Source of the DNA: Diphasiastrum complanatum | Taxonomy: Eukaryota > Streptophyta > Lycopodiopsida > Lycopodiales > Lycopodiaceae | Direction: 5' to 3' | DNA: 64,000 nucleotides | Assembly: GCA_029204225.1 (NCBI GenBank) | Contig: CM055104.1 | Coordinates: 21,823,952 to 21,887,951, forward strand | In this document: piece by piece, positions 6,490 through 62,244 of the stretch | How the letters are laid out: the number at the start of each line of letters is the position of its first letter | Position numbering within the stretch: position 1 is the first letter of the stretch | Made by a program: the position numbers and the translations under genes | Notes under the pieces: model-generated | The model's input: only the letters and a program-made list of their open reading frames with translations | What the model was told of the DNA's origin: nothing | Database searches by the model: none

Positions 6490-8246
6490 TCCACCCCACC
6501 TTTATGAAATCTGATGTCCTCATCAGATGTCAGATTAAAGTAAAGGTGTCTCCCAATTAAAATGACTATACATTTAAGCTACTTGGCACAGTACTCAATT
6601 TACTGGCCACTTTTTATTAACATTGAAGCTGGCACGCCACAAGTCGGAGGCTCAGCTCTTTGTACTGAAAAATTACATAACTTGAAAATATATCTTTGTC
6701 TGGGAAAAGCGTAGATTTGATATCGCTTTCGTAAAACCCGAGAACCTTATTAACTGGTGACAGAGGCCTTTCTTTGAAATGTTCGCCCCTGTCGCTTTTG
6801 ACTTTCGACTTTGGAACTCCTTTGAGCTCCTGATTTGTCCTTGATGCACTTTGTGTTGAGCTCCCTGAGCTCCAGATTTGTTCAGTTCCGCACAGGTATC
6901 AAGGCTCCCTGAGCCGAAGGATTTATCGTTTGATTGCCCACTTTATGGTCCACTCCGTGCCTTGTTGCTTCTGCACCTTGATTTCTCTCTTTGTCCCAGC
7001 CTGATCTTGATACTTTTCCATCTTGGCTCTTTAAGGTAGGCAAAGATTGAGTACTCCGCAATGCACCTCTCACTTAGCTTGAAGTAGCTCTTTGAATCAG
7101 CCCAAATGTAAACCATTGACCTCGTGGAAAGCCAAAGGGTCGCTCCAGTTTGATCCGCATCCGAACTATCTCTTCGTGTTTGTTTGAAGCACCATGTCCG
7201 TCGCGCAAAACTTGACTTTCACAATTCCATCACTGGTCAGTTGCCTCACAGTCAAAACAAGAAGTGTACATCGAGCTTGGCTTCAAGTAGCTCTCTTTGA
7301 ATCAGAAACATGCACCCAGAGTTTGCACTAATCCGATCTCAACGCGAACTGTCCCTTAGCGTCCGTTCGAAATACCAAGCCTTTCATGCAAGACTCAACT
7401 TTCACAGTTCCTTCATTGATCAGCTGCCTTACACGTAACACAAGCCAGCGTACTCATATGTTTCCTCATCATTGCTGGTCCAGAGAAAGCCTATAACAAA
7501 CTTTCCTTTCCCAACAAAAACTTGTCAACTTATTAGGTCCAAAGTTCGCCAGTCTCCTCGTGTGAGTATGGCTAGGTCACCTTGAATTTGCCCCCATTTT
7601 GATCAACTTTCATTCAAAATTTGCCCCAAGAGAGAGGTGTGTGTGATAGTTCCCCTCCACTTAATAAATCAGCTGATCGGACTTAGAGTAGAGTTCTTCG
7701 GACAAAAAGCCTTTCCAACACTTTGCTTCCCATCTGCTAGGATTATGGCTCGATCCAACTTGTTGCCAATCTCTGAAGAGGATCCTAGTCTTTTCCCCTT
7801 TGAGGAAAAATCCAACTGATACTGGATATCACCCATGCTCAGTGAGTTTCAGTTCCGAAGGTGGCCGTCCCAAAATGAAGACCAACTGCTCCATAGGAGA
7901 TCTCCCCTGAAATTGCCCTTTCCAACTTTTGACTTCCTGCTTGCGTCTGGTGGGCATTGTCGCAAATGAAACTAACCCAAGAAACAGGCTAGCCATCCAT
8001 CCTTTGCAAACATTGAGTCGTTTCGTTGTCGTTCACGTGTGAGTACTTGAACTGCAAATCCGCCCCACAGATTCTGTAGTCCTCTTTGTTTGATGGTATC
8101 AGCCTTCAAAAGAAAAGGTTCCTTCTCGAGCCATCAGCTCCTTGTATCACAAGCAATCATGCAAACCAGGCAAAGCACGAGTACTAAGACTCACCACGAA
8201 TACATACAAGTAAGACACTCAGGCAGGTTTACTAACAAGTAACAAA

Positions 8247-8550
8247 ATGATGTATGATCTCAGTATGTGCTGCACATGTCAAAATGGTAATGTCAGTCCT
8301 AGACTTGGAACAAAATATACTGGTGAATTGAAAGCTGCTCTGAGCATGCATACTAATCATGTAATGAGTAATGTGATCTTCTCCCCATGCTTTTGATACT
8401 GCATCAACAAAATCGACACAAGTCTTTTGTAGAGCTCTCTTATTAATATCAGAAAATTTGTCTTTTCTTAATATCTTAATCATATAGTCAATTTCTCCAT
8501 ACATCAACTTTCAATAATCTTGATTTGTCGGTCACTCCTAAGTCTTCGGT
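8247..8550 (-). other. 304-base insertion with exon-like coding sequence
   Basis: The A interior stops at ...AAGTAACAAA (8246) and resumes at GACAAGGTCCCCC (8551), as seen by comparison with 31925-31955. The inserted DNA has a minus-strand frame (8507 down to 8232) including IDYMIKILRKDKFSDINKRA and AWGEDHITHYM. The latter loosely resembles a segment found next to transposase-like domains in plants, but I cannot name the family. No clear target duplication flanks the insertion. It could be captured host or transposon sequence. Confidence 0.55.
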
Positions 8551-8656
8551 GACAAGGTCCCCCTTTGAGATGGTCCTGCCAACGGACCTTTGTCTGGCCG
8601 CGTCCATACAAATCGATAACAGAATCAGCCCACATAGGACACCCCTCCAACCATCC

Positions 8657-9195
8657 GTGCTTTCACCATTAAGCAGCACATTGCCTCAGTCACGCCCCAC
8701 CACTTTTTGGTCGATAGCCCTTATAGCTAAACGATCGGCAGCTATCCTTGAATATACCACCCCCGTGGACGCACCCTTGCTTTCACCGTTAGGCAGCACA
8801 TTGCCTCAGTAACGCCCCACCAAATTTAGTCGATAGCCCTTATAGCTAAACGATCGGCAGCATACCACCCAAATCGTGGACGCACCCGTGCTTTCACCGT
8901 TAGGTAGCACATTGCCTCAGTAACGCCCCCACCAAATTTGGTCGATAGCCCTTATAGCTAAACGAACGGTGGCCATCGCGAATATGTCACCCCGCACCCC
9001 ACAAGGCACAGACCGTGCTTACACCATCCTAATGGCAGCACATTGCCTCATCTGTCCTACGTGCAGACGGTGCCAGCCCGAACCGCGGAAACTGACCGTG
9101 CTTACACCTCAAGGGCAGCACTTTGACTCATCAAGCCCCCGTTCTGCCAACCACCCCGACCGTGGACGCACCCGTGCTTACACTGTGGGCAGCAC
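8657..9195 (-). repeat. six-unit stem-loop array in the A leader
   Basis: Six copies of a GTGCT...AGCAC inverted motif spaced about 75-120 bases: 8657-8679, 8777-8799 (one arm changed to TTGCT), 8888-8910, 9015-9041, 9098-9121 and 9174-9195. The first three lie in a tandem triplication of a 110-118 base unit that also holds the TAGCTATAAGGGCTA-type palindrome (seen here as its complement). The homologous leaders at 26151-26536 and 31442-31827 have five. The array is in the 5' leader of the transcript. Confidence 0.8.
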
Positions 9196-9215
9196 CTTGC
9201 ACTTCTGCAAGAGTT

Positions 9216-11090
9216 GAAAATGTTACATGTATTGATTTCTTTTCAAACAAGGTGTATTACACCTACAAAATATAATAGGCCTCACAAACCCTAAACCACT
9301 AATGTAAGCCACAAGAGTAAGGACTAAGAAATCTCATTCTCACGAAACTTTGATGCAAATGTGATTTTATCTAAGCAATATGATGCATTAACCTTTAATA
9401 GAGCACATTATCACATTAAAACACATTGAGCATAAAAAAAATAAAATCTCACGTAAATGCCATATTTTAGAATCTAAAAAGTTACCTCTCGTACTACTGG
9501 ATTTGATGTGTGCACTCCATGACACCAAATATGATGGTTGACAATCCTCCTTGTTCAAATCTTAAGGCCTTTGCATTGTGTGCATGTACAAAATATATTT
9601 TCATCGTATTGTGGTTGATTCTACTCAAGTATTCCGATTGCCAATGGTAAGTGATATTGTAGCAAGACAAATTTTTCATGTCATTCACCACTACTACAAC
9701 TAAATAAATTATGCCATAATTCAATATACATACCCGTAATGGATCAACAGGCGGTCTACGTCGACAAATGGAAGAACTTGAAGATGAAGATGAACCAGTC
9801 AATAGTTGTTCATTGACCCTTAGTCTTGCTTGCTCCTTTCTTCTATGATACATCTCAATTTTTTTTTTTCTAAATCATATTGAGGTACGATAATTGGTCT
9901 ACAATTCATAATTCCATTAAAATTATGTCATTGTAAGCACATAAAATTTTATAAGTAGTGACGAAATGAAAAAGATAAATGTATTGCACAATCATATTCG
10001 AATAACAAATAAAGTGCAATTGTTGTCAATATAACTAACAATCTTTACCTGCTGTCGCGATCATGAGATGAATCCGCTTTGCATCTTTATTAAAGACATG
10101 CCAACATTCTTTTTTATTTATTCAAATACATTTCACATATGCTTGATGAAAATCCAATATTCTAGTAACATTTGTTAATTTTCTTGCATTGTGAAGCCCA
10201 CAACTTGTTTCAATAGGATTAGGAATAGGAGTAAGAATATGAATGAGTGAACGGTAGTATCTCAACATCCAGTCTCTTATCAACATGGTTCATTTACTTG
10301 AATTGCTTTCTCTCATGTATAGTTGGATTTAGGTATCTATCTAGGTTTAATATGTTTACAAAAAAGGCTTGGGTTTAGAGACTAGCTTCATCCAACTCAA
10401 TTCAATCCTAACTTCAAATAGTAAACTGAAGGGCGTGACAAGCAGGACTAGCTCGAATGTATCGAAGAGAAAGAGTGTATCCAGCCTTCGAATGTGAGAG
10501 TCATGATCTTCGAACATCTCGATAGCCATCATTCAGGCCTCAAGGTACTTCAAATAGATTCAAGAACATGACCAATAACTCGAGAAATCTGGTCGTCAAT
10601 AGTAGAACTATCGAACATCAGAGGGCCCCACTTACTTAGGAAGTGCTATGGAAATGCGTTGAAGGGTGCAAAAATAATGGATGAGTAAGTACGCTACCCT
10701 TCATATCAGAGAGAGAGGAGAATATCTATGCTGACAGTCTCTAATCTATATAAAATATGGAGCACTGCCCTGCATTCTGAATGCAATAAAGAGAGAAAGA
10801 CAGTTTCAAAGAGAGAATCGAACCTTTGATACATTCTTTTGACGTATGTCCTTCAAAAACCTGAAGAGCGCTTTCAATAGTAGATAATGGCCTTCAATTT
10901 TCAAGAAGAACCAAAGGTTGAGTATGCTAGAAGGCCACATGTATGGTTGCATGAAGTTTTAGAGTTTCACTGCCATTCAACAGTCCTTCAAGAACTTTGA
11001 TAGTTCGAAAGAGCAGGTTATTTCGATCTGTCGGACAAAATGCACGATGTGCAATATGATTGTACATTTTGGTTGAGTGTTTAAAATTGC
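9216..11090. other. unassigned AT-rich stretch
   Basis: No family is recognised. A minus-strand frame at 9494-9853 (119 codons) starts MYHRRKEQARLRVNEQLL and has a run of eight Ser followed by CRRRPPVDPLR; it may be an exon of an unknown gene or chance. A TATA-like element lies at 10745-10755, listed separately. Otherwise only AT-rich sequence with no repeat shared with the rest of the window. Confidence 0.3.
10740..10800 (+). promoter_or_regulatory. TATA box followed closely by a polyadenylation signal, LTR-like
   Basis: CTATATAAAATATGG at about 10746-10760 is followed some 30 bases later by GCAATAAAGAGAG (about 10785). A TATA box with an AATAAA about 35-40 bases downstream is the arrangement of a short U3-R boundary in an LTR or TRIM. 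No matching second LTR is seen, so this may be a solo remnant. Confidence 0.3.
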
Positions 11091-39904: not shown

Positions 39905-40230
39905 TAGTTACAAGGGAGAGAGAGGACCGCAGAGGGACCGTAGAGGACCGTAGAAGGACCGCATAGGATAACAAAAGGACCACAGAGGGACATCATTAGG
40001 AGGGAGGAGGGATCGCATTAGGACCGCAGAGGGACCGCATTAGGGACCATAAAGGACCGCATTAGGGACGTCATTAGGGACCGCAGATGGACCACATTAG
40101 AGACCGTAGAGGGAACGCATTAGGGACCTCAGAAGACTGTAGAGGGTCGCATAGGACCGCAGAGGGACATCATTAGGAGGGAGGGGGGACCGCATTAGGA
40201 CCGTAGAGGGACCGCAGAGTGTCACATCAG
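39905..40230. repeat. GGACCGCA minisatellite
   Basis: About 25 irregular units of 11-14 bases, mostly GGACCGCAGAG or GGACCGCATTAG. A larger block (GACCGCAGAGGGACATCATT and following AGGAGGGAG) occurs near 39965 and again near 40155, about 187 bases apart, showing a higher-order duplication. Confidence 0.85.
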
Positions 40231-41123
40231 GGACCCTCTCAAATTTTACTGAAAATGGACTTGAGAATTTTGAGACAATGTTCATTTACAAAAATTCGAT
40301 AATTTAGCAGTATGTGAATCACGTTTGAATTGGGTATGACATGATTGTGTACTATAAAACTCATGCATACACAAATATTATAAAACTTCTCATAAACATA
40401 TCATAGTAGAAAACCTTTTCAAATCAATTAAAAAGTATATAACATTCATAAAAAATGACACATTAATAGTAAATCTTTATTCAAAGTGTATTCATTTCTT
40501 ATATTGTCAAAATTAGCGGTAACAACCCCTACTGCTTGAGGTATGAAGCACTTAAATTGCTTTTACGGTTTAGGCATAACAACCAATACAAACTATAATG
40601 TCTCTACGTTTATATCCATATAACCTCATCAGACTCCTCTGACCCAAAACTTGAGTCTTCAGATGAATTTGTCTCTAAAGGTGATTCCAAATGGTCTTGA
40701 TGTCCCCAATTAGCCACATGTCCGCGAAGCCCCTTCCCAGGTCCAACTTTTGACAAATGTCCTGGGCAAACCGTCTCTCCCATGGATGTATTGGTAGTTC
40801 CTATAGGTTGCCCACTGGCCAGAACTTATTGCAGAAGAAACCGTTACTTGGAGGACAAACTAGACTTGGAACCCCAAATCTTGAAAAGTAGGTTTTCCAT
40901 ATCGTTGTCAATTGGTTAGGACTTACGACGGAGGAAACCGATACTAGGAGGACAAACTGGACCGTAAACTTTAATACAAAAAACTAGCCCATTTTTAGAC
41001 GACCAGGCTGCACTGCTTCCGTCACAAAGGGGATTTCTAGGCAAAAGGCCTCGGATTCGAGTGTGACGAGGTCCCTGCTGTCCTGCATAGGCACCCCATA
41101 TCTGAGATTGGAAACTCTCTCGG
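40231..41123 (-). other. unassigned, with a coding-like acidic tail on the minus strand
   Basis: A minus-strand frame near 40818-40625 reads PIGTTNTSMGETVCPGHLSK at the start and ends with ESPLETNSSEDSSFGSEESD plus a few residues and a TAA. The acidic Ser-rich end looks like a protein C-terminus, but no family is evident and stops lie upstream (for example at about 40829). The last 200 bases before the LTR at 41129 may be the left part of the gypsy segment C. Confidence 0.25.
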
Positions 41124-44344: not shown

Positions 44345-44705
44345 GGGACTCATCCTGGACGACAACGACATATCTGAGGCTTAAGGGAGCCGTGAGTACC
44401 TTTTTCTTTCATGCTAATAAAGTAAGCCGCATTTCTCATTGAGGAGTGAGCTTCAGTTTGATGTCTAAGTGCAGCAGCTTCACACAGGTTTTACGTAAGT
44501 GAACTAGATCCACACTTTTCCTGTGCTGGGTGTAAAACACAATATCATTACTCTGCTTTACAGTTGGTTTCCTTTGGCTGGTGAATCAAGCCCGTGCCCT
44601 TGTATATGTGACTAAAGTCTGGCCGGTGAATTAAGCCCGTGCCATGAGTCTTAGGTTCTAGTTTGGCCCTGATGAGGACATCAGCTTTCTCAAACGAGGG
44701 GAGGA
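44345..44705 (+). promoter_or_regulatory. C 3' untranslated region and polypurine tract
   Basis: Carries CTAATAAAGTAAG (about 44415), two copies of CCGGTGAAT(C/T)AAGCCCGTGCC (about 44578 and 44622), CCTGATGAGGACATCA, and the polypurine tract GAGGGGAGGA at 44696-44705, as in element B. Confidence 0.85.
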
Positions 44706-45625
44706 TGTTGTAAAGCTGACTTGGGTGCACCCAGCATGCCCTGTAAGACTCAAAGGGGTGACACTCCCTAAGGTCCCAGAGCAAGTTAGAATGTCAAGGA
44801 CTGAGCCTCCGACCTGTGGTGAGCCAGTCAAGTAGTCACAAAGTCATGAGCTAGCTCTGGAGCTCGAGTCATGGCCTAGTCAGGAAAGCAGGTTGATTCG
44901 GCCGCCGGGACGGCTCCCGGGACCCATGTCCGGGAGCCAGACTGATTCTGCCAGGCTTGCCAGGCTTAATCAGCAAAATAAAAACTAAGTCCTAAAAAGC
45001 GTGCTTTACCAGAAAGCACTATGTTTCAAACCAGAGGGGGTGCGCCGAATCACAGCAGAACTATAGGGGGAGTCCGGCAGACAGAAACTTGGGCAGCTCA
45101 ACCAGCGCCAGGAATCTAGTCGCCAGGTCTCAGCTCCCTCTACCAGCACGAGCCAGGCACAATGCCCAGCACGTGTTGGTGGCCCCGAGATCGGTCAGTC
45201 TATGTATGAATGTAACCTCTTCCAAATCTAATAAAGTTGATCCTTGGGGATGATTACCATTTCGGTTTCGCCTCCGGGACTGGTCCAAGTGGAAGGACCA
45301 TTACTACAACCTTTTTGCATCGCTGGCGCCTAAGGGTCCCTGTCATCGACATGGGGCTTGCCGATATGCCAATTGGTCAGTTTGGCGACCACTATGCCTT
45401 GGGTTTCATGTGTGGCTTGTCTTTGCCTTTGGTTACCTTTTGGGGACGGATTCTGAGTTGGCTTTCGGGTTGGTTGGGATTCCAGTTTTCTTAAGTCTGA
45501 ATGGTTAAGCTTGTTACGATTCTGAGTTGGCTTTTACGTAAGTGCATAATGGATGAATGTTAGACTTAAGCGCGTGTTGGGGAAACCGCTCAAGTCCCAG
45601 CGCCCTTTGAGGCGCCGGCGCAACA
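44706..45625 (+). repeat. B-type 3' LTR of segment C
   Basis: 920 bases, TGTTGTAAAGCTGAC to GGCGCAACA, complete. The upstream LTR of this element is not intact in the window; only the 57-base B LTR piece at 42362-42418 remains. Confidence 0.9.
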
Positions 45626-46478
45626 GACATCACGATGGATAGTATAGCGCAGAGATTGGGAAGTATCGGTAGAGGACATGATGATCAGAAAGGAAATATA
45701 AAACGAATAAAAGTGTATTAGAAAGCAATGCAGGAATTTTGGAAGGCTTTGGTCGCAAGAAAAATTCGCAAGAGCTTTGCTAGCACAAGTGAGGAATGAA
45801 TCGAATTCAGTCAACTTATAGGTGAATTTGGTGGGTCCATTACACTGAATACTAGTTTGGCTGATTAGTTCTGAACAAAAATTTGCAGGCATGTAAATAG
45901 GCTATAAAAATCTCGACGAAGGTTTATGGGGATCTGAACCTATCAGACGAATGTTTTCCATGTCTGGCGAAGGATGAACCTTCGCCCAGGTACTGTCATA
46001 AATGCATTTTTTCACAATCTAAACCTATGGTCAACCTAATTTTAACATTTTAAGATCATCTAACAGATCGGCGAAGGTTCATAATGAGGTTAAGATGCTC
46101 GGCGAAGGTTCCCAAAATGGCATATCAATGATACTTCGCCTAACTCAAAAACTAGGTTTTCTCTTGACAAAAACCTTCGCCCACCTTAAATTAGATAATC
46201 TAGAGTGGATTTACAGTCTGAGAGCTCATCGAAGGTTTCTAGTACTGTATAGGCCAAATATGACCAAAACAATGATTTTCTAAGTCTTTTTCCATCAAAA
46301 AATTACTGTGCTTCCTTTTTTTCTATGCTGATGACTTTCTGACGTTTGCTCATCAGTCTTTTCTTATCTCTTGCTTTACTTTTTTTTTTTTGACTATCTT
46401 TTTCCAAAAATCTCAGCAAATTAAGTACTGAAAACAAAAAATTGAAAAATAATTAAAATTTTTAAAAAAGTATTGAGA
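45626..46478. repeat. non-coding stretch with repeated GGCGAAGGTT motif
   Basis: Seven copies of GGCGAAGG or its complement: 45966-45973, 45979-45986, 46070-46077, 46101-46108, 46134-46140, 46174-46181, and weaker ones at about 45914 and 46228. The pair at 45966-45986 is a perfect 8-base stem with loop ATGAA. A TATA-like CTATAAAAATC lies at 45902. The stretch lies past the 3' end of the E pol on its strand and may include its 3' LTR, but no partner LTR is found upstream. Confidence 0.5.
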
Positions 46479-48028
46479 TCAGGCTTGCTGAACTGGCAGA
46501 GCAGGCTGCCAAAACTTGCGTAATCGACAGCCATTCACCGGAGTATCAAATCGTTTTCCATCCAAGTGCTCAAGAATTACTGCGCCATAGTTCAAGATTA
46601 CCTTCACTTTATACGAGACTTCACCGGTAAACTTCAACTTTCCCTTGAGCAGTTTGGTTTTGTACATCAATGCCAGATCTCCTGCTTTCAGATTTTTTTT
46701 TGTGTAATCGACGATCGTGCCATGCCTTGCGGGGTGTTTTCTTTGCTGCTAAGGCATGAACTACCATCAATCGGGTTTCACATAATTTGTGCAACGCTTC
46801 ATGATGGAGTTGTAAAGACTTATCATCATTTAATCGTTCCGTTGCTGCTATGCGTAAGGATGAGATTAAAAATTCAATCGGCATGACAACATCTTGACCA
46901 TAAACTGGTTGAAAAGGTGTTTGATTTGTACTATTTTTGTAAGCAGTTCTGAATGCCCATAATGCTGCATATAGTTTATGTTCCCAATCAGATCGACTCG
47001 CTTCAACTATCTTTGTCATAATGGTGCAGAGAATCTTATTGGAAGATTCAGCTTGGCCATTCCCTTTGGGATAGTAGGGAGTACTAAATCTGTGTATAAC
47101 AGAAAAAAATCTTCCAATAAACACTTTATTGTTTGATTAACAAAGTGTGTACCCCGGTCACAGACAATCTCAATCGGACATCCAAATCTGATTATAATAT
47201 TTTCATATAGAATCTTGGCCGTAGATTTTGCATCAGCAACTTTGACAACTTTGGCTTCTACCCACTTGGTCATATAATCAGTTGCGACGATAATGTATCA
47301 GGCCTGAGATCCTTGCGCGACATGGTGAATAGGTCCAACATAATCCAGTACCCATTTTCCAAACGGTGCTTGTGATAAAACTGGATGCAAGAGTTCATTG
47401 TTCTGTCGAGTAGGTCGTTGTGCTCACTGGCAAACATCACATGTCTGAATAGAATTTTATGTGTCCTTGTGAAGCATAGGCCACCAACAACCTGATTGTA
47501 AAAGTTTGCGAACAATAATATCTATAGAGAAGTGTCCTCCACCCATGCCATCATGTGAAAACATGATTAAATCTGGTACTTCATGCGGTAAAACATACCT
47601 TCGTAAAATATTATCTGATCCACGACGATACAATTGTCCTGCAATTAATTGATAAGGTTGAGCCTTATGAATCAATTGTCTCTTCTGTACTTTTGTCAAG
47701 GAGACATTCGGTTGTCCTAGGTACTCAACAATATTTGTTGCCCACTCAGGTACTGCTTCAACATAGAACAATGCAACATCTGGCAGTTCATCATTCACTT
47801 CAGTATTAACTGGTGCGCATTCAATTCGCGAAACGTGATCGGCTAGATAATGTTGCTTGCCCTTTCGAACCACAATTCGAAAGTCAAATTCAGTCAATAA
47901 CAATAACTATCTTGCAATACGTCCAATATTGCATGTCTTGTTTACCAAGTAAAGTAACGGTTGATGATCCGTATAAAATGCAAAGTGCGTTTCCATGAGG
48001 TAGTGACAAAATTTCCGAACAGAAAGAA
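46479..48028 (-). pseudogene. Tat/Athila-like gypsy E: RNase H end and integrase
   Basis: From 48028 leftwards: RNase H C-terminus (VRKFCHYLMETHFAFYTDHQ, LLLTEFDFRIVVRKGKQHYL, ADHVSRIE), integrase zinc region (HDGMGGGHFSIDIIVRKLLQ, GCWWPMLHKDT), core (MTKWVEAKVVKVADAKST, IEIVCDRGTHFVN, STPYYPKGNGQAESSNKIL), then TEFDWEHKLYAALWAFRTAY-type sequence and a C-terminus ending LNYGAVILEHLDGKRFDTPV and NGCRLRKFW. At least three frameshifts or stops lie between 46621 and 47515. No chromodomain is present, as expected for Tat/Athila. Confidence 0.85.
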
Positions 48029-48291
48029 TTGTTTCTATTTGGACAATAGAAGCATTAGAAGCCTTTGAAAAATTAAAAAAAGCATTAACTTCAGCACCAA
48101 GACTGCGTTCTCCAGATTGGATGATAGAGTTTCATGTTCATACGGGTGCCTCAAAATACGCCATTGGATCAGTTTTGACACAGCCAGGTGACTATAAGAA
48201 ATATTATCCTATACAATTTGCAAGCAGACAACTTACAGATCCAGAAAAGAATAATTCAACAACAGAACGCGAGGTATTAGCTATAGTCAGT
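48029..48291 (+). pseudogene. inverted RNase H segment inside E pol
   Basis: This piece of about 260 bases codes on the plus strand, while all flanking pol codes on the minus strand. It reads WTIEALEAFEKLKKA, then FHVHTGASKYAIGSVLTQP and TTEREVLAIV, which is exactly the RNase H N-terminus missing between IYKLT (minus, right side) and LSVRKFCHYL (minus, left side). A clean in-place inversion explains it. The fragment E' (53857-55158) has the normal order. Confidence 0.88.
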
Positions 48292-49199
48292 TTGTATATA
48301 GGTCGTGCTAAGTCCGCAAAGAAGATAATAAAGATTTGATAGTAGTTCACATGACCCATAAACACGTAAGCTCCACGAATTGTTGTTGGTGGTGGCAATT
48401 CCACAATAACTTTGATTTTAGAATAATCCGTGGCAATACCATGTCTTGATATCACATGTCCAAGCACAACTCCGTGGGAAACCCATATCTGACATTTTTT
48501 TGGATTTAGAGAAATCTGATATTTGCGGCATCTTTCAAATACTTTCTCCAATCGATCCAGGTGGTCTGTATATGTACTATGAACTCCCAAGTCATCGAAG
48601 TAAATTTCAAGGAATTTTTGCACATAATCTTTAAAAGCAAATAGCATTACTCATTGGAATGAACTTGGTGCATTACAGAGTCCAAACGACATTACTTTGT
48701 AAGTATAGGTGCCCCATTCTGTTGCAAAAGCAGTCTTATGGCGATCGGTAGGTGCAATCTTAACCTGGTTGTAGCCACTAAATCCATCTAGGAAACTATA
48801 AGCTTCCGCTCCAGCAAGACGATCCAAAATGCTTTCAGTAAAAGGTAACAGAAAGTGATCCTTTTGCGTCACTTTGTTCAACGCTTTGAGATTTACACAG
48901 ATCCGCAATTTTCCATTTTTCTTAGGAACAATGACAATCGGTGAAATCCATTCAGTATGCTCGATCTCATAAATAAAATCGGCGTCAAGCAATCTCCAAA
49001 GTTCTTTCTTTATCAGGTCTGCCACATTAGGATTACAACGATAGAACTTTGTAACCTTTGGAACTGCATCAGGTACTAAAGGTATGGTATGTTCAATCAC
49101 CGATGTCGGAATACCCTTCAAATCTTGATAAGTCCATGCAAAACAATCTTGATACCTAATAAGTAACAATTGGAGTGCTTGATAATGTTCAGGAGTAAG
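48292..49199 (-). pseudogene. E reverse transcriptase
   Basis: In one frame with two stops: LTPEHYQALQLLLIRYQDCF and AWTYQDLKGIP at the start, EWISPIVIVPKKNGKLRICV, LKALNKVTQKDHFLLPF, FLDGFSGYNQVKIAP, VMSFGLCNAPSSFQ, a TGA at 48651-48653 where the family has Arg, then IYFDDLGVHS as the catalytic YxDD box, CRKYQISLNPKKCQ, LGHVISRHGI and FADLARPIYKLT. SGYNQ and FCNAP-type blocks with DHFxLPF place it in the Tat/Athila branch rather than with the chromoviruses. Confidence 0.88.
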
Positions 49200-50104
49200 T
49201 TATGATCCAACTTGTCCAATCTTTTCTGGTTCTCCTGGTTCGGCAAGATTCATTGGCTGCGTCCTAGCTGGGCCATCGTAAACCTCTTTAGATTCCGACA
49301 TATGTTCTTCAGGTTCACGATGTGCTTTAGGTAACATGATAACCACATCATCTAGTGTATAATGTTTAAAATGTTCAGTCATATCATGCTGGACTACATC
49401 TGTTTGTTCTTTTTTGAAAGGACTTGTCTTGGATCTTTGCTTAGCCTTCTTAGCAGGAATTGATCCTGGAGGTGATGACTTTTGAGATGATAAATCTTTC
49501 TTCACAGGTGAAGACTTCCTAGACGATGATGTTTTACTAGAAATCTGACTTGAAAAATCATCCTCGACTTTTCCTTTGCCTTTATCCAATAAGGGTGGCA
49601 CTTCCTCTAAATAAATCTTTCGAGGGGATTTTCCCATTTCAGGACCATATTACTATGTTGCTTAGCTTGTTTCTTCGTCATCAATCCTGTGATCCTGTCT
49701 TCCTTTAATATAACTGCTTTGGGCGGTTTTACTGTGAGTTCATCAAGAACATTACGCACTCCAAATCTGGTCGGATCCATATGATTTAGAATCTTCTCAT
49801 CCGTAAGTTTTGCATTGTCATCATAAGTCAAGGCATGACTCACAGGAATGAGTTCATCCTCAATTGGATCTGGTATAGGTTCCGTTGATATCCAGGCTAC
49901 ATTCAGCACATTCAGTGGAAGCGTGATTGGTGTATCCAAAGTTCGATCTAATAAGGAAATCTCGCTCAAATTTGATTGATTATCTTGTTGACACATATAT
50001 CCTGCTGTACAGTCAATTGTTACAAGAGCTTCATTCCAATTTGTTAGATATGGTGAACTCCTGCAACTTTGTCGCAGCACAAACAAGACACGAAGGTCGA
50101 ACAA
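49200..50104 (-). pseudogene. E pol-upstream linker region, unassigned
   Basis: 49637-49200 (MGKSPRKIYLEEVPPLLDKG onward) is a Ser/Lys/Pro-rich linker in frame with RT, split from it only by a TAA at 49200-49202. 50104-49607 is in another frame (VTIDCTAGYMCQQDNQ, LMTKKQAKQHSNMVLKWENP). Neither shows the protease DSG motif or a zinc knuckle. In Tat-type elements a long poorly conserved stretch precedes RT, which fits. Confidence 0.55.
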
Positions 50105-50782
50105 TCCGCGATAGTCAAGATGACTTTGACTCGAAGCACGAACGAGAACAATTCACGACAGTCAACGTGTCTTTGGCTCAAAGCACGAACGATTCGCGAA
50201 TCAATCACGAATCGCAAACACACCTCTAGGACCGCAAAGCTAAAAAAGAGACGCGAAACGAAAACTACAAAAGGAATGAAAGAAAACGGGAGATTACGAA
50301 ACATACGAAGGAAAATCTTTCACGTTGCCAGCTGGCAGCTCGATGGGCTTCACGCCCAACTGAAACGAGTAATATTATGACAAAAAATTTTATTTATGCT
50401 ATGATGATAGATTTAAACTAAAAAAAAAGTACATGCATATCAGAGATAAATTGAATATACCTTGAGAGATTTAATGGTTATCTCTCCAATTGAGATCGTT
50501 GTCGGCAATTCCTGAACGACATCATGAAGTAGAGAATCAAATTCTCTATGTGTATTAGTAACTGAGTTTACTTTTACACATAGAAAATTTGATAGTCCCT
50601 CCTTATTTATCTTTACAAAAAGAATGTTTAGGCTCCAATGCCGACTACAACAATCAAAATACAAATATCGATAAATCCTTACTTATTAAAGCAATGCCGA
50701 CTGCAACAATCCAGATTAAAGCAACAAAAACAAACGAGCAATCCTTAGTTATTCTCAAATGGAATCAAATAAAATTTTGTTA
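50105..50782 (-). other. gap between E pol and the histone-fold ORF
   Basis: No gag, zinc knuckle or protease is visible here, so these are deleted or never present. 50060-50240 is rich in CGAA/TTCG words and has the perfect palindrome GATTCGCGAATC at 50191-50202. A minus-strand frame at 50440-50664 has no recognised motif. Confidence 0.35.
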
Positions 50783-51867
50783 CTAGACTGCATTCGATGA
50801 AATATACATCCTTATCAACATGGCTTCTTTTGCCTTCATCGCTCCTATAAAAAATGGACTAACAACAAAAACTACACCATGAGAATTAGAACTAATACTA
50901 TTCTGCAAAAAGCATCCTCCGGCTTCTACTATTACATCTGTAATTTCTGATGTTTTATCTTTTAGCTCAATACAAAATTTGGGACCTAATCTAAAGCTTC
51001 TATGTGAATTTGGAAGAAAGAAATCAAAATAATTGCCGAGAAGATCAATTTTATCAGCTAAGCAAGCCTCGTACTGGTTATAATGGTCAGAATCAAAATA
51101 AACTTGCGCAGGATCGTATGGAATTCTGACAAAAAGATTATGTACAGGAGTAGAAAGAGAAGTAGATACAATATTTATAGATTTCTCAATTATTTTGTCA
51201 AGCTCCTCTTGGGTAATCATCACTTTTGGTGAAGAAATTTTCTGAGGAGCTGGACGAATAATACGAGGAGGAGAGGGTGATTCTCGGTCTGAATCAAATT
51301 CTCCGCCATTTGATTCAGAGCTCAAGACAATGCGGGGTCTCTTGGTAGGGATAACTCTAGGAGGAAGGTAAGCTGTCCTTTGAGATCCAGCTTTCTTGGG
51401 AATATGCTACTTCCTTTTCCTCCTAGAGGTAGTCGGCAAGTTTGTTCTATCTAGAGGCAGGTCTCTGGAGGTGCTGGTGTTATCCACATGCAGACCAAAA
51501 TTATAGTCCCGAAGTCTTCTGAGAATGATGAAATCTTTTGGCATGATGGTGACACGCTTACCATGCACGACCAAAAGGCAGGTACCCTCAAAAAATTGGG
51601 CCAGAAAGTCTTTTATAGCACCTTGTAAGGCCTACATGACTGTCACGACAAAACGAACATTTAGCCCAAGTGACAGAGTGAAATTCTTGACAGATCGGCC
51701 AAAAGGAGCTCTCGGGATATACAATTCAATTGATCTATGGAGTTTTCTAATCTCCCTCAGCTAGACCTGCTTTTTGCCACGTCTACGGCCAGTGCTAGGG
51801 GGAACACGAGCATGGGATGGCTATACAGTGGGTATGGCACGACAGTGGATTTGGTCCTAGCCATCAT
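50783..51867 (-). pseudogene. histone H3-fold protein fused to an unknown C-terminal domain
   Basis: Starts at ATG 51867/51864 with MARTKSTV, as in histone H3. One frameshift in 51790-51850, perhaps at the C5 run at 51797-51801, leads to the main frame: STGRRRGKKQV, then the H3 core (51760-51506), a basic tail (LPTTSRRKRK, about 51430-51410), PRVIPTKRPRIVLSSESNGG, and a 150-residue C-terminal domain ending at 50783. TAG codons interrupt at 51761-51763, 51632-51634 and 51407-51409. The C-terminal part has an acidic Ser/Pro hinge, ITQEELDKIIEKSINIV, FVRIPYDPAQVYFDSDHYNQ and GVVFVVSPFFIGAMKA; I know no family for it. It is on the same strand as E pol and 5' to it, where gag or the extra ORF1 of Ogre/Tat elements would be. 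A host H3-like gene remnant beside a retroelement is the alternative. Confidence 0.75.
51506..51760 (-). other. histone H3 core fold (alpha-N to alpha-3)
   Basis: 85 residues align to canonical plant H3 without any gap. Identical blocks are LREIRK at the start, PF and R.V in the alpha-1 region, RF in loop 1, ALQ.A and L..FE.T.L in alpha-2, H.KRVTIMPKD in loop 2, and RR.R at the end. By eye about 38 of 86 positions match H3 as I know it. The IPRAPF segment is closer to plant CENH3 (IP.APF), while loop 1 has the canonical length and MPKD is canonical rather than CENH3-like. Canonical H3 ends soon after RRIRG; here the chain runs on. Confidence 0.9.
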
Positions 51868-52181
51868 TCTTAGAATAAAAAAAAGTAAATTAGAAAAAAA
51901 AAGGTTAAACCCAAGCGTAGGGAATGAAAACAAAAAAAATTGCGATCAGAAGGTGCTTGAGATCGATACCAAAACTGAATATCGGTTTTGAATGCAAGAT
52001 AGATAGAGAATATGTGCATAAAAGAGATCCGTGCTCGAAAGCGATATTGGAATAACAGCGCAGTATCGGTCTCGAACGCATGGTGAGAAGGCGGAGTATT
52101 TTGCAAAGAGAGAACGCGCTTGAGAGTGATATTAGGAGCGAAAACTGAAAATTTTCCAAAAAAAAATGAAAATTCCAAGGG

Positions 52182-52461
52182 TATATATATAGGAAATTTT
52201 TGCCCGATTGAAAAAAATGGTTGATGACACATGTCGACATCTAACTGGTCCACGTGGATTGTCCGTACTGAAAATGATGACTCAATTATGAGGCCACGTG
52301 GGTCGGGACACGTGCACGAATCAGATTTGGACACATGTCATTCGGCACGTGATAGATGTCAGATCAGTCATTGTCTGTATGGTGGAATATTAACGATGAA
52401 TCATGTATCGACACGTGCCCTTTTGGAACTCCTCCACACGTGCAAATTTCTTTTATAAATA
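52182..52461. promoter_or_regulatory. divergent promoter with six G-boxes between two TATA boxes
   Basis: CACGTG occurs at 52251-52256, 52295-52300, 52309-52314, 52346-52351, 52412-52417 and 52437-52442. A TATA box on the plus strand (TATAAATA, 52454-52461) and one on the minus strand (ATATATATA, 52182-52191) point outwards. The minus-strand box is about 315 bases before the histone-fold ATG; the plus-strand box is about 310 before the ATG at 52765. G-boxes bind bZIP and bHLH factors in plants; responsiveness here is inferred. Confidence 0.65.
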
Positions 52462-52764
52462 GGTCATTTTCGGCGCGGATTTTCATGCAACTTTTCGATT
52501 TCTTGTCCGGATATCGATTTCAAGCATGCCCTTTTGCACTGTTTATGCTCCGTTGACTTACTTGCGCCTGGAATCAAAACTGTCTTTTTTGGTATTGTAT
52601 TCAAACGCGCCTTACATCTCATTTTTTTTGTATATGCGCTCGGACCCGATACCCTGTTTTCTTATATCACTTTCGAGCGCACATTGCCTTGAGGTTCTTG
52701 TCTGACCTGCATTTTGTGCTTGAGAGCGATATTGGGAATTTCACATCTGTATTTTTTGCTCAAA

Positions 52765-52923
52765 ATGTCTAATTTCGATTCTAGTTTGCTTTCTTTTTTT
52801 CATGAATTTGGTATTAGTGATAATTTAGAGTATTTCAAATCCCTTTTTTCTCCTTTTCTTTTTATTCTTCCTTCTATTATTGAGGGTCCTGGTGTGGATG
52901 CACGTAAGTTGTTGTTGAAATAA
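52765..52923 (+). CDS. possible first exon of an unknown gene
   Basis: ATG in context CAAAATGTC opens a frame reading MSNFDSSLLSFFHEFGISDN and on to PSIIEGPGVDARK. A strong donor CAC|GTAAGT at 52904-52909 lies in it, so the coding part may end at 52903 rather than at the stop at 52921-52923. It follows the plus-strand TATA box and a CT-rich leader. No family is recognised. It could be a retroelement leader instead of a gene. Confidence 0.3.
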   Translation: MSNFDSSLLSFFHEFGISDNLEYFKSLFSPFLFILPSIIEGPGVDARKLLLK

Positions 52924-53215: not shown

Positions 53216-53856
53216 TACTTGTGGGCGGATTCGCAGTTCAAGTACTCGCACATGAACGGCAACGAAATGACTGGATGTTTGCAAAGGATGGATGCCTATT
53301 ACTTGGGTTAGTTTCATTTGCGACAATGCCCACTAGACGCAAGCAGGAAGCCAAAAGTTGAAAAGGATAATTTCAGGGGAGATATTCTATGGAGCAGTTG
53401 GTCTTTATTTGGGATGGCTACCTTTGGAACTGAAACTCACTGAGCATGGGTGATATCCAGTATCAGTTGGGTTTTTTCTCAAAGGAAAAAGACTAGGATC
53501 GTCTTCAGTGATTGGCAACAAGTTAGATCAAGCCATAATCCTAGCAGATGGAAAGCAAAGTGTTGGAAAGGCTCTTGTCTGAGAACTCTACCCTAAGTCT
53601 GGTTAGCTGATTTTATAAGTGGAGGAAAACTATCACACACACCTCTCTCTTGGTGCAAATTTTGAATGAAAGTTGATCAAAATGGGGGCAAATTCAAGGT
53701 GACCTAGCCATACTCACACGAGGAGACTGACGAACTTTGGACCTAATAAATTTGGAAGTTTTTGTTGTGGAAAGGAAAGCTTGTTACAGGCTTTCTCTGG
53801 ACCAGCAATGATGAGGAGACATAATGAGTAAAACTTGTAAAGGTATTTTTACAACA
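53216..53856 (+). mobile_element. A interior fragment with an LTR head remnant
   Basis: 53216-53829 follows 32360-32985 of element A (GGCGGATT, GCAGTTCAAGTACTCGCAC to AATGATGAGGAGACATA), with a few small deletions. 53832-53856 (ACTTGTAAAGG...TTTACAACA) is the complement of the A LTR head, so the fragment was rearranged. Confidence 0.8.
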
Positions 53857-55158
53857 GATTCTCTCTGTGTTGTTAGGTAGAGCAAGGGTTGATGATCAGT
53901 GTAGAATGCAAAATATGTTTCCATAAGATAATGGCGAAACTTCTTGACTGAAAATACATTGCCAAGGCTTCTCGCTCAGTCATTGGATAATTGATTTCAG
54001 CAATGTTGAGTTGTGGATTGACGAAGCGATTAGGAAAATCTTTCTTGTACTCGTCTGGCTGGTGGGTTAAGATTGCTCCTATAACATACTTTTATGTGTC
54101 AGTATGCACATGAAATTCAATTGTCTATTGGGAGGCCATAAGATCGGCACAGGTATAAGTGCTTCCTTCAGATTTTGGAAAGCCTGCAGGGCTTCCTCCG
54201 TCCAAAGTGGATTAATTGTCAGCTTGTAGATAGGACGTGCCAAATCTGCAAAGAATAGAATGAAGATCCTGTAGTATTTGGCATGCCCCATAAAAACATA
54301 AATTTCACGAATTGTTCCAGGGTGTGGAAGATCTATGATAATATGTATCGTAGACAGATCCCGTGTCTAGATACAATATGGCCTAAGATAAGACCATGTG
54401 TGACCCAAAACTGGCATTTTTTTGGGTTCAATGATATTTGAAATTTGCGACATTGTAGAAGCACTTTTTTCAAGTGAGATAAGTGTTCATCATTGTATCT
54501 ATGCACACAAAGATCATCTAGGAAGATCTCGATTTATAAGCAGTCTTCGAATGCCTTTTGCATGACACGCTGAAAAGAGCTGGGGGCATTTCAAAGATAA
54601 AATGGCATAACCTCATAGGCATATGCACCCCATTCAGTAGCAAATGTTGTCTTGTGTTGATCCTCAAGTGCAATCTTCACTTGGTTGTAGCCGCTGAAGC
54701 CATCCAAAAAACTATAAGCTTCTGCTCCAGCTACTTGATCCAGGATGCTTTTTGTGAACAATAAGAAAAAGTGATCCTTTTGTGTCACATCCTTAAGTGA
54801 CTCAGATTGACACAGATCCGCATTTTGCCATTCTTCTTGGGAACAATGACTATGGGCGACACCCATTTCATGTGCTTGATTTCATAGATGAAATCGGCAT
54901 CGAGCAACTTCTCCAGCTTCTATTTGATTAGCTCAGTGTAGTTCGGGTTGCAACGATAGTATCGACTCATCTTTGGTGTTGCTCCTTCGACCAAAGGTAT
55001 GGTGTGCTAAACTACAGATGATGGAATTCTCTTCAAATCTATAAACGACCGTGCAAAGCAATGTTTATATTCCGTCGATAGTTTCAGTAGCTTGGTGAAT
55101 TGTGAGGGCGTGAGTTGTGCTCCCACATGAACAATCTTGTCTTCTTCTCCTAGCTCTA
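53857..55158 (-). pseudogene. E-type gypsy RT/RNase H fragment (E')
   Basis: Minus-strand remnants: KDVTQKDHFFLLF, AEAYSFLDGFSGYNQVKIAL, FATEWGAYAYEVMPF (54591-54866), then RT thumb and FADLARPIYKLTINPLWTEE and ALQAFQNLKEALIPVPILWP (54079-54291). It is related to, but clearly diverged from, E at 46479-49199 and retains the uninverted RNase H start. It lies exactly between two A LTR heads that point away from it. Confidence 0.8.
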
Positions 55159-55251: not shown

Positions 55252-55512
55252 TATTAGAAGTCAATGATAAACTTCATTGTTACACTTCTTAGTTATTGTT
55301 TACGATGTACTTTATTACTAGCTATAACTAGCCGTTGGCTAGTCTAGTAGTCTACTCCTAGGTTCTCCCTCTCTATCAGGGTTCAGGGTTTATATGTACA
55401 TTTTACATTCAGTATGTTGTAGTGTGATAGATTGATAGTGCATGTTCTTCTTTCGGCTTCTTTGGTGATTGCTTATGGTGAATGCTTGATGTTGCATATC
55501 TGATTATTGACA
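55252..55512 (+). repeat. 5' LTR of copia F
   Basis: Begins TATTAGAAG (TG changed to TA) and ends GATTATTGACA. The initiator tRNA-Met-type primer-binding site TGGTATCAGAGC follows directly at 55513-55524. Confidence 0.93.
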
Positions 55513-59887: not shown

Positions 59888-60487
59888 ATGCAAGATCCTA
59901 GTCAAACACACTGGAAGTTTGCTAAACGTATTCTCAGATACATTCGAGGGACATTGAATTTTGGTTTGAAATATGATCAGTCTGAAGTGCCAATATTGAT
60001 AGGATATACATATGCTGATTGGGCATGTAATATTGATGACAGAAGGTCTACCAGTGGTCATACATTCAGTTATGGTACAGCTGCAGTTTCATGGAGCAGC
60101 AAAAAGCAACCTATAGTAGTCTTATCCTCGAGGGAAGCTGAATATCGAGCACTCAGCAATGCTACACAAGAAGCGGTATGGTTACGAAGATTGCTTGTGG
60201 ATTTAGGTAAACCACAGGTGGATGCAACTACTATATCTTGCGACAATCAAAGCTACATTCACCTTGTCAAAAATCCAGTTTTACATGCTCGAACCAAGCA
60301 CATCGAAATACATTATCATTTTGTTCGAGAGAAAATTCTTGATGGAGTCATTAATCTTGTTTTCCGTAAATCTGAAGATCAAGTGGCAGATATGTTTACT
60401 AAGTCATTAGGTAGATGTAAATTTGAAAAGTTTTGTACTCTACTAGGAATAGAAAAATGTAATTTTATCATTGAGGGAGAGTGTTAG
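59888..60487 (+). pseudogene. copia F RNase H
   Basis: Open for 199 codons: HWKFAKRILRYIRGTLNFGL, GYTYADWACNIDDRRSTSGH with the first Asp, SSREAEYRALSNATQEAVWL with the Glu, SCDNQSYIHL, KHIEIHYHFVREKILDGVIN and VADMFTKSLG. It ends with ECstop across the polypurine-rich TTGAGGGAGAG (60471-60481), just before the LTR. This is the best preserved domain of F. Confidence 0.93.
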
Positions 60488-60742
60488 AAATCAATGATAA
60501 ACTTCATTGTTACACTTCTTAGTTACTGTTTACAATGTACTTTATTACTAGTTGTAACTAGCCGTTGGCTAGTATAGTAGTCTACTCCTAGGTTCTCCCT
60601 CTCTATCAGGGTTCATGGTTTATATGTACATTTTACATTCAGTATGTTGTAGTGCGATAGATTGATAGTGCGTGTTCTTCTTCCGGCTTCTTTGGTGATT
60701 GCTTATGGTGAATGCTTGATGCTGCATATCTGATTATTGATA
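60482..60742 (+). repeat. 3' LTR of copia F
   Basis: TGTTAGAAATC to GATTATTGATA; the final CA has become TA. Confidence 0.93.
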
Positions 60743-61094
60743 CCAGCGCCAACGTCGCTCCCGGTGCCACTGTGACCAGAATCCAGCCAGCGCCAAGTTC
60801 CTATTGCTGACAAACTTTGATTGGTTCTAGCGAAGTCTAGAGAGCTCGGATCGATGTGCAATCACCTCACATGATCTAGGCATGATTAAAGGAAGCCTGG
60901 GGATTAATAAAATCTAGAGAGAGAAAATAACTTTCTAGAGAGAAAAAAATGTGTTTTACCAACTTGGGCAGAGCACTTGGTATGAGGGGAGGTGACGAAT
61001 CCCACCAGAACTATAGGGGGATGCGGGTTACGAGTTAGGACGAGCTCCAACCAAGTCTCAGTGCCCCTTGCTGGGATGTTGTCATGGCGTCCGC
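60743..61094 (+). mobile_element. A LTR continuation, interrupted by element D
   Basis: Continues the A LTR from the GGCGCC block (CTGTGACCAGAATCCAGCC) through the promoter-like block (here ACCAGAACTATAGGGGG) to GTTGTCATGGCGTCCGC, where the minus-strand B-type LTR of element D begins. Confidence 0.85.
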
Positions 61095-62003
61095 TGTTGC
61101 GCCGACACCTCAAAGAGTGCTGAGACTTGAGCGGTTTTCCCAACACGCACTTAAGTCTAACATACATCCATCATGCACTTACGTAAAAGCCAACTCAGAA
61201 CCGTAACAAGCTTAACCATTCAGACTTAAGAAAACTAGAATCCCAACCAACCCGAAAGCCAACTCCGAATCTGTCCCCAAAAGGTAACCAAAGGCAAAGA
61301 CAAGCCACACATGAAACCCAAGGCATAGTGGTCGCCAAACTGACCAATTGGCATAGCGGCAAGCCCCATGTTGATGACAGGGACCCTTAGGCGCCTGCGA
61401 CGCAAAAAGGTTGTAGTAAGTGTCCTTCCACTTGGACCAATCCCGGAGGCGAAACCAAAATGGTAATCATCCCCAAGGATCAACTTTATTAGATTTGGAA
61501 GAGGATACATTCATACATAGACTGACTGGTCTCGGGGCCACCAACACGTGGTGGGCATTGTGCCTGGCTCGTGCTGGTAGAGGGAGCTGAGACCTGGTGA
61601 CTGGATTCCTGGCGCTGGTTGTGCTGCCCCAGTTTCTGTCTGTCGGACTCCCCCTATAGTTCTGCTGTGATTCGACGCACCCCCTCTGTTCTGAAACATA
61701 ATGCTCTCTAGTAAAACACGCTTTTTAGGACTTAGTTTCTATTTTGCTGATTAAGCCTGGCAGAATCAGTCTGGCTCTCAGACATGGGTCCCAGGAGCCG
61801 TCCCGGCGGCAGAATCAACTTGCTTCCTGACTAGGCCATGACTCGAGCTCCAGAGCTAGCTCATGACTTGTGACTACTTGACTGGCTCACCACAAGTTGG
61901 AGGCTTAGTCCTTGACGTTCTAACTTGCTCTGGGACCTTAGGGAGCATCACCCCTTAGAGTCTTACAAGGCACGCTGGGTGCACCTAAGTCAGCTTTACA
62001 ACA
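61095..62003 (-). repeat. B-type 3' LTR of element D
   Basis: 909 bases in reverse, TGTTGCGCC to TTTACAACA. Next to it (62004-62018) is the complement of the polypurine tract GAGGGGAGGA. It marks the left end of a second chromovirus on the minus strand. Confidence 0.92.
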
Positions 62004-62244
62004 TCCTCCCCTCGTTTGAAAAAGCTGATGTCCTCATCAGGGACAAACTAGACCTAGGACGTATGGCACGGGCTTAATTCACCGGCCTTAACAACTTTGA
62101 ATAAAAAAATACATTGGCAGTAGCACAAGAAAAGTGTAGATAAAGTTCACTTATGTAAAACCTGTGTAAAGCGGCAAGTGATTTATTGACAAACTTAAGA
62201 AAGATACCTGGAAGTTCCTTGAACTTCAGAATGGCCATGAATGT
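62004..62244 (-). promoter_or_regulatory. D 3' untranslated region and polypurine tract
   Basis: Same order as 30248-30488 in B: complement of CCTGATGAGGACATCA next to the polypurine tract, then the CCGGTGAATTAAGCCCGTGCC block. Confidence 0.85.

What the first reader, a model, noticed from the sequence alone, without database searches (positions are those of the whole stretch)
51410..51867. Histone H3 fold in the gag-side position of a Tat-like gypsy element
Seen: on the minus strand, MARTK at the start and, from 51760 to 51506, 85 residues that align to canonical H3 with no gap and about 44% identity by eye, including LREIRK and KRVTIMPKD. The frame continues into a basic tail and a further domain that H3 genes lack. 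The same strand, about 700 bases downstream, encodes Tat/Athila-like RT. I know of no LTR retrotransposon that carries a histone H3. Inference: a captured H3 or CENH3-like gene could load onto chromatin, steer integration to centromeres, or pack element DNA. A decayed host gene beside a TE is the main alternative.
Basis: partly seen in the sequence, partly recalled or inferred. Interest (0 to 1): 0.95.

Follow-up and report, generated by a model that had tools for sequence, protein, structure and literature searches.

The report
Transposon carrying its own histone H3
A large family of jumping genes in this genome carries a gene for an altered DNA-packing protein (histone H3), which it seems to have kept under selection and which lacks the spot where cells usually place a common silencing mark.

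The parts
50368..52902 (-). Truncated fragment of the H3-carrying DNA transposon (both termini missing); homologous to the middle of 7-10 kb copies elsewhere
   Evidence: blastn of the window against 20 fetched copies, shared block win 7099-9633 (one copy to 9643) = window 52902-50368, pieces 67-85% identical; copies have TIRs
51506..51760 (-). Histone H3 core (alpha-N to alpha-3), with one in-frame stop at 51632-51634
   Evidence: Pfam Histone 1.1e-15; PDB H3 3.8e-15; stop positions
51764..51867 (-). Start (MMARTKST) and short H3-like N-terminal tail, frame-shifted after MARTKST, stop at 51821-51823
   Evidence: translations in three frames; uninterrupted copies have start, tail and core in one frame
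51230..51505 (-). Basic and serine/acid-rich linker (..TSRRKRK.., ..LSSESNGGEFDSDRE..), stop at 51407-51409
   Evidence: translation; conserved in copies
50783..51229 (-). C-terminal domain fused to H3 (matched part 51229-50843); no relatives found
   Evidence: coordinates; no Pfam; residues 118-370 of the L015 copy (linker and this domain) found no homologue at E<=10 among 625 candidates of a 5.8-billion-protein search; 150 scored copies in the genome
52765..52902 (+). First 46 codons of the element's divergent second gene (ORF2, MSNF..), then broken off
   Evidence: tblastn match 78% over 46 aa; other copies carry it as minus-strand ORF2
46479..50152 (-).
   Evidence: Pfam RVT_1 2e-12, Integrase_H2C2 0.0025 and rve 1.2e-5, the last two below the curated cut-off; not shared by the other H3 copies but for one 127-bp match in L016

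Best explanation
What it is: the window holds a dead, end-truncated copy of a TIR DNA transposon family that encodes a RAG1/Transib-like DDE transposase and carries, as cargo kept under selection, an H3 variant fused to a private C-terminal domain (this part about 0.93). How it most likely works (inferred, about 0.35): the element-encoded H3 is made from the stretch that it shares with the divergent ORF2 and joins nucleosomes on or near element DNA. Because its tail keeps K4 but has alanine for K9 and no evident counterpart of K27, those nucleosomes cannot take H3K9me2 or H3K27me, so the element weakens the host's heterochromatin loop and stays expressed and mobile. The C-terminal domain would hold the histone to element DNA or to the transposase. 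Shown: anatomy, copy number, constraint on the ORF, K9 to A, partly retained contact residues. Not shown: expression, nucleosome incorporation, effect on silencing.
Against: For tail plus core alone the selection signal is weak (odds ratio 0.62, p 0.11; only with minor count 4 or more 0.46, p 0.026; core alone never below p 0.076). Transposase pieces, orf3 and orf4 of the sampled copies show no clear constraint. R63 is proline in 21/22, K56 and K79 are changed, R69 is kept in 15/22 and R83 in 11/21, so nucleosome incorporation is not assured. The model of the H3+C-terminal protein failed (pLDDT 29.7). No TSD at 5 of 5 copies, odd for a RAG1/Transib-type element. The RAG1 match rests on a homologue (P0105, 31% identical to the element's transposase), and its E motif lies in a low-confidence part. 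Loss of K9 is also what a CENH3-like or drifting tail would show. 19 of the 25 copies were chosen for a C-terminal domain without stops, which lowers stop counts.
Confidence: 0.45

Rival explanations
1. Passenger: a host H3 transcript was captured long ago (transduplication) and is copied along without helping the element; the constraint comes from the C-terminal domain to which it is fused.
For: Capture of H3 by hAT transposons with mostly dead copies is published for fungi; most copies here carry stops (20 of 25 loci); selection is strongest in linker and C-terminal domain (odds ratios 0.32 and 0.42) and weak in the core (0.59, p 0.17).
Against: The core still reads as a histone at 45-52% identity to a plant H3 (P0001), with several fold residues kept; tail+core odds ratio 0.46, p 0.026 at minor count 4 or more; 24 of 25 non-duplicate loci keep H3 remains.
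Confidence: 0.22
2. CENH3-like targeting: the protein is a centromere-type H3 that loads at or near centromeres and steers the element's insertion or inheritance.
For: MARTK followed by a diverged tail, LLIPRAPF and KDF resemble plant CENH3 (recalled sequences aligned); the L015 ORF scores CENP-A about as well as H3 (2.7e-20 against 1.2e-20).
Against: No CENH3 loop-1 insertion and RF as in H3 in copies with R83 kept; identity no higher to recalled CENH3s (40-51%) than to plant H3 (45-52%); scored places lie on C1-C21 and C23 among the large contigs, though distance to centromeres was not tested.
Confidence: 0.18
3. Transposition cofactor: the H3 fold, with H4 or alone, binds or bends the element's ends in the transpososome, or marks target sites, with no role in silencing.
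For: Gene sits inside the TIRs with transposase pieces and ORF2 in 5 of 5 full copies; basic linker next to the core.
Against: Nothing links it to the transposase; no partner or DNA-binding data.
Confidence: 0.15
4. One reading: a Tat-like gypsy element captured H3 in the gag position.
For: Same strand, first pol-side ORF about 0.6 kb from the end of the C-terminal domain in the window.
Against: Similarity to 20 copies ends at about 50360, before pol; copies end in TIRs.
Confidence: 0.02

Closest known systems
H3L-carrying hAT transposons of Pyrenophora tritici-repentis (Manning et al. 2013, PMC3538342; passages read)
   Same: TIR DNA transposon with transposase, an ORF of unknown function and an H3-like gene between the TIRs, multiplied in the genome
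   Different: Fungus; hAT transposase; 26 very similar copies of 5.6 kb (10) or 2.3 kb (16); the passages mention an expressed chimeric protein but not clearly that H3L is part of it; no selection test in the passages read
H3-carrying hAT transposons of Pseudocercospora fijiensis and relatives (Dhillon et al. 2019, PMC6710886; abstract and passages read)
   Same: Captured H3 amplified to hundreds of copies by a DNA transposon
   Different: There all copies but the original gene were inactivated by RIP; here some ORFs are uninterrupted and the ORF evolved under constraint; different transposase
RAG1 / RAG-like / Transib transposases
   Different: About 12% identity; no match to them by sequence in Pfam or PDB at the limits used; no 5-bp TSD (recalled as typical) at 5 of 5 copies; a RAG2-like partner was not searched for
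Anti-silencing proteins of plant MULEs (VANC of VANDAL elements) and TET/JBP-carrying KDZ transposons (both recalled; paper look-ups failed)
   Same: A DNA transposon carries a gene that acts on host chromatin marks: proposed analogy of function only
   Different: Those encode a demethylation-inducing factor or a DNA-modifying enzyme, not a histone

Membership tests
Histone H3 family | Histone fold with H3-type alpha-N and alpha-1 to alpha-3 | tested here: met
   By sequence: Pfam Histone 1.1e-15 (window) and 1.4e-23 (copy L015); PDB top matches H3. The structure model failed
Histone H3 family | Modifiable tail lysines K4, K9, K27 | tested here: not met
   K4 19/19 kept, K9 alanine 22/22, no evident counterpart of K27 by eye. 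A variant H3, not a canonical one
CENH3 / CENP-A | Groups with CENH3 in a tree; longer loop 1 | tested here: inconclusive
   Own clade, support 1.000 and long branch, placement weak; loop 1 of H3 length (three CENH3/CENP-A references recalled). Host CENH3 not obtained
Tat/Athila Ty3/gypsy LTR retrotransposon | H3 lies with gag/pol between LTRs in repeated copies | tested here: not met
   Shared sequence excludes pol; ends of 5 full copies are TIRs
RAG1/Transib transposon superfamily | RAG1/Transib-type transposase fold | tested here: met
RAG1/Transib transposon superfamily | 5-bp target-site duplication (recalled) | tested here: not met
   0 of 5 copies with both ends
hAT transposons carrying H3 (H3L) | 8-bp TSD (recalled) | tested here: not met
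   0 of 5
hAT transposons carrying H3 (H3L) | hAT transposase | tested here: inconclusive

The most novel reading that the evidence does not exclude
A DNA transposon family, moved by a RAG1-like transposase that no Pfam model covers, encodes its own variant histone, K9-less and fused to a private domain, that is selected because it builds silencing-resistant nucleosomes on element DNA: a mobile-element-encoded chromatin weapon made from a core histone.
Probability: 0.33. Interest if true: 0.93.

Novelty: new variant of a known kind. Interest (0 to 1): 0.74.

Why it matters
Core histones are among the most conserved host proteins and H3K9 methylation is a main handle for silencing transposons. 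A transposon family with over a thousand sites whose members carry an H3 without K9, in an ORF kept under selection, would be a direct test case for whether mobile elements fight silencing by changing the nucleosome itself. It also points to a RAG1-like transposase family without a Pfam model.

Tried and rejected
Rejected: Tat/gag position; decayed host gene (dispersed copies); annotated H3 fusions as relatives: the four best protein matches are gene models with two H3 stretches and without the C-terminal domain; Helitron (first thought from the 3' hairpin; dropped when inverted termini were found). (19 sequences, mapped on one copy): the 'wrong frame' control for ORF2 was invalid (frame anchored at the other end), so the ORF2 ratio (0.54, p 0.009, minor count 2 or more) has no frame control; transposase pieces 1.35 at minor count 2 and 0.43 at 3 (n.s.), its D2 piece 3.9 (p 0.034) at 2; orf3 1.69 at minor count 1 (p 0.046), 1.34 and 2.64 above (n.s.); orf4 0.76-2.14 (n.s.); C-terminal domain 0.65 and 0.59 (p 0.11, 0.12), weaker than. 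Other families in the fold listing (P element, ISCth4, Hermes) score lower; CACTA or KDZ transposases are not in that list, which does not exclude them. Not answered: 3' terminus count, host H3/CENH3 genes, element H3 counts and a plant marker (genome search busy; answered at 12 and 57). Paper searches on anti-silencing factors failed (paper reading). That I saw no plant case in print rests only on the listings and the term search.

Full report
Observation. On the minus strand, window 51760-51506 encodes an H3 core in one frame with one internal stop; Pfam Histone E 1.1e-15, PDB H3 3.8e-15, 44-46% identity to the four best protein matches. MMARTK at 51867 is in another frame, and four stops interrupt the H3-to-C-terminal frame before its final stop. 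The copy in the window is dead. Behind the core come a basic linker and a 207-aa open stretch without a Pfam match.

Not a Tat element. The window lies in a 1.74-Gb assembly. A search with the 207-aa stretch scored 150 places out of 5,615 first-look candidates, all at E below 1e-83, on many contigs. I fetched 20 of them, chosen for lack of stops in that domain, with about 4.5 kb on each side. Blastn of the window against them shares window 52902-50368 (one copy to 50358) and stops there, before the pol (RT 49199-48204); one unrelated-looking 127-bp match in L016 is all that they share with the pol stretch. So the pol is a neighbour.

What the element is. Comparing copies with further flanks gave a common 3' end (...GGGCTCTAAGTTTCTCTAATG) and its inverse at the 5' end (CATTAGAGAAAATATGGGCCC...). 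For five copies I fetched the missing 5' side and found the terminus in 5 of 5: spans 9,248, 9,271, 8,251, 9,381 and 7,222 bp, with imperfect termini of about 31 bp. All five carry pieces of a transposase gene, a divergent minus-strand ORF2, and the H3 gene with its C-terminal domain; four of five also carry parts of two further frames, orf3 (only 19 residues in one of them) and orf4. These five come from loci chosen for the C-terminal domain, so they do not tell which share of all copies carries H3. The 5' terminus with up to 3 mismatches occurs at 619 + 607 = 1,226 places; the reversed pattern at none.

The H3 protein. Of 150 scored places 6 have a stop-free frame of 370 aa or more; five were read (L014, L015, L022, L039, L040) and all start MMA[R/K] and run through tail and core; L022 and L040 have altered C-terminal ends, and L040 is close to L012. 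Remains of tail and core of 40 residues or more are found in 24 of 25 non-duplicate loci (four duplicates dropped; exception L003); 20 of 25 carry at least one stop. Tail: commonest residues ARTKSTA[H/R]AIT; K4 in 19/19, K9 replaced by A in 22/22; L039 and L040 also have A. By eye the short tail has no counterpart of K27 or K36. Core: R63 to P (21/22), K56 to R (20/21), K79 to G (20/21); R69 kept in 15/22 and R83 in 11/21; residues equivalent to R72, H113, R116, K122 and D123 mostly kept (numbering recalled). Identity of the core in three copies is 45-52% to a plant H3 (P0001) and 40-51% to recalled plant CENH3s, scores slightly better with H3; in a tree the element copies are one long-branched clade with unsure placement. 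Origin from H3 or CENH3 stays open.

Selection. Among 25 copies (19 of them chosen for a stop-free C-terminal domain), changes seen once are near neutral (transversion N/S 0.97), shared ones are not (0.37); frames +1 and +2 and flanking stretches lie between 0.82 and 1.27 for shared transversions. With minor count 3 or more the whole ORF has an odds ratio of 0.45 (p 2.7e-7), controls 0.74-1.55 with p above 0.05. By part: linker 0.32, C-terminal domain 0.42, tail+core 0.62 (p 0.11); at minor count 4 or more tail+core 0.46 (p 0.026), core alone 0.45 (p 0.076). Shared variants are not independent events, so p values are guides. Pairwise dN/dS medians 0.44 (core) and 0.36 (C-terminal domain), diluted by decay after insertion. 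A second, smaller set gave a weaker C-terminal result (0.59-0.65, p about 0.11-0.12) and no clear constraint on transposase pieces, orf3 or orf4 of these copies.

Reading. The constraint on the ORF while the family multiplied suggests that the fused protein helped the element. A core that keeps part of the residues needed for nucleosomes, plus a tail without K9, suggests a silencing-resistant histone. This is inference: plants silence transposons through H3K9me2 and linked DNA methylation (recalled), and the host being a plant is itself inferred from its LTR elements (copia-type gag in L016) and genome size; a marker search did not complete. Rivals are a passenger gene, CENH3-like targeting and a transposition cofactor.

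Known work. H3 genes inside hAT DNA transposons are published: Pyrenophora tritici-repentis (10 long and 16 short copies, ESTs; PMC3538342, passages) and Pseudocercospora fijiensis with five further genomes (hundreds of copies, all inactivated by RIP except the original; PMC6710886, abstract and passages). A 2026 review of gene capture in plants has no occurrence of 'histone' in its main text (PMC13317346, term search and passages). Listings in which I saw no plant case. Hence: new variant of a known kind, in another kind of transposon, with a fused domain for which no relatives were found and with evidence of selection.

Noticed in passing
L015 (whole): Copy L015 shares only its 3' part (from about 2434 in its own orientation) with copy B (L027); and between copies B and C the transposase half is more alike (94%) than the H3 half (87%). 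Modules may be swapped between element types.
   Followed up: no
L018 2654-3248 and 3253-3809: About 600-bp imperfect tandem repeat (80%) in the stretch between ORF2 and H3, seen in several copies; possibly part of a two-way promoter.
   Followed up: no
P0005 (180 aa): An H3-like protein of unknown source with LLIRRAPF and a changed tail has the highest identity to the element's core among the H3s compared (51-56%).
   Followed up: no
P0089-P0119: 31 protein clusters of a RAG1/Transib-like transposase family for which no Pfam model was found, without a source name; their genomic contexts could not be fetched.
   Followed up: partly
window 55254-55510 and 60484-60740: Direct repeats of 257 nt, 96% identical, 5,230 bp apart: may be an LTR pair.
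   Followed up: no
window 44657-45626 and 61094-62052: Long inverted copies (669 nt at 94% and shorter pieces) 15-17 kb apart: perhaps two copies of another repeat in opposite orientation.
   Followed up: no
window 40007-40238: Run of irregular repeats (GAGGGACCGCATTAGG...), seven overlapping copies in one family.
   Followed up: no
window 53784-54881 (-): A second, decayed pol fragment (RVT_1 2.4e-5 at 54333-54533, below cut-off) on the other side of the H3 fragment.
   Followed up: no
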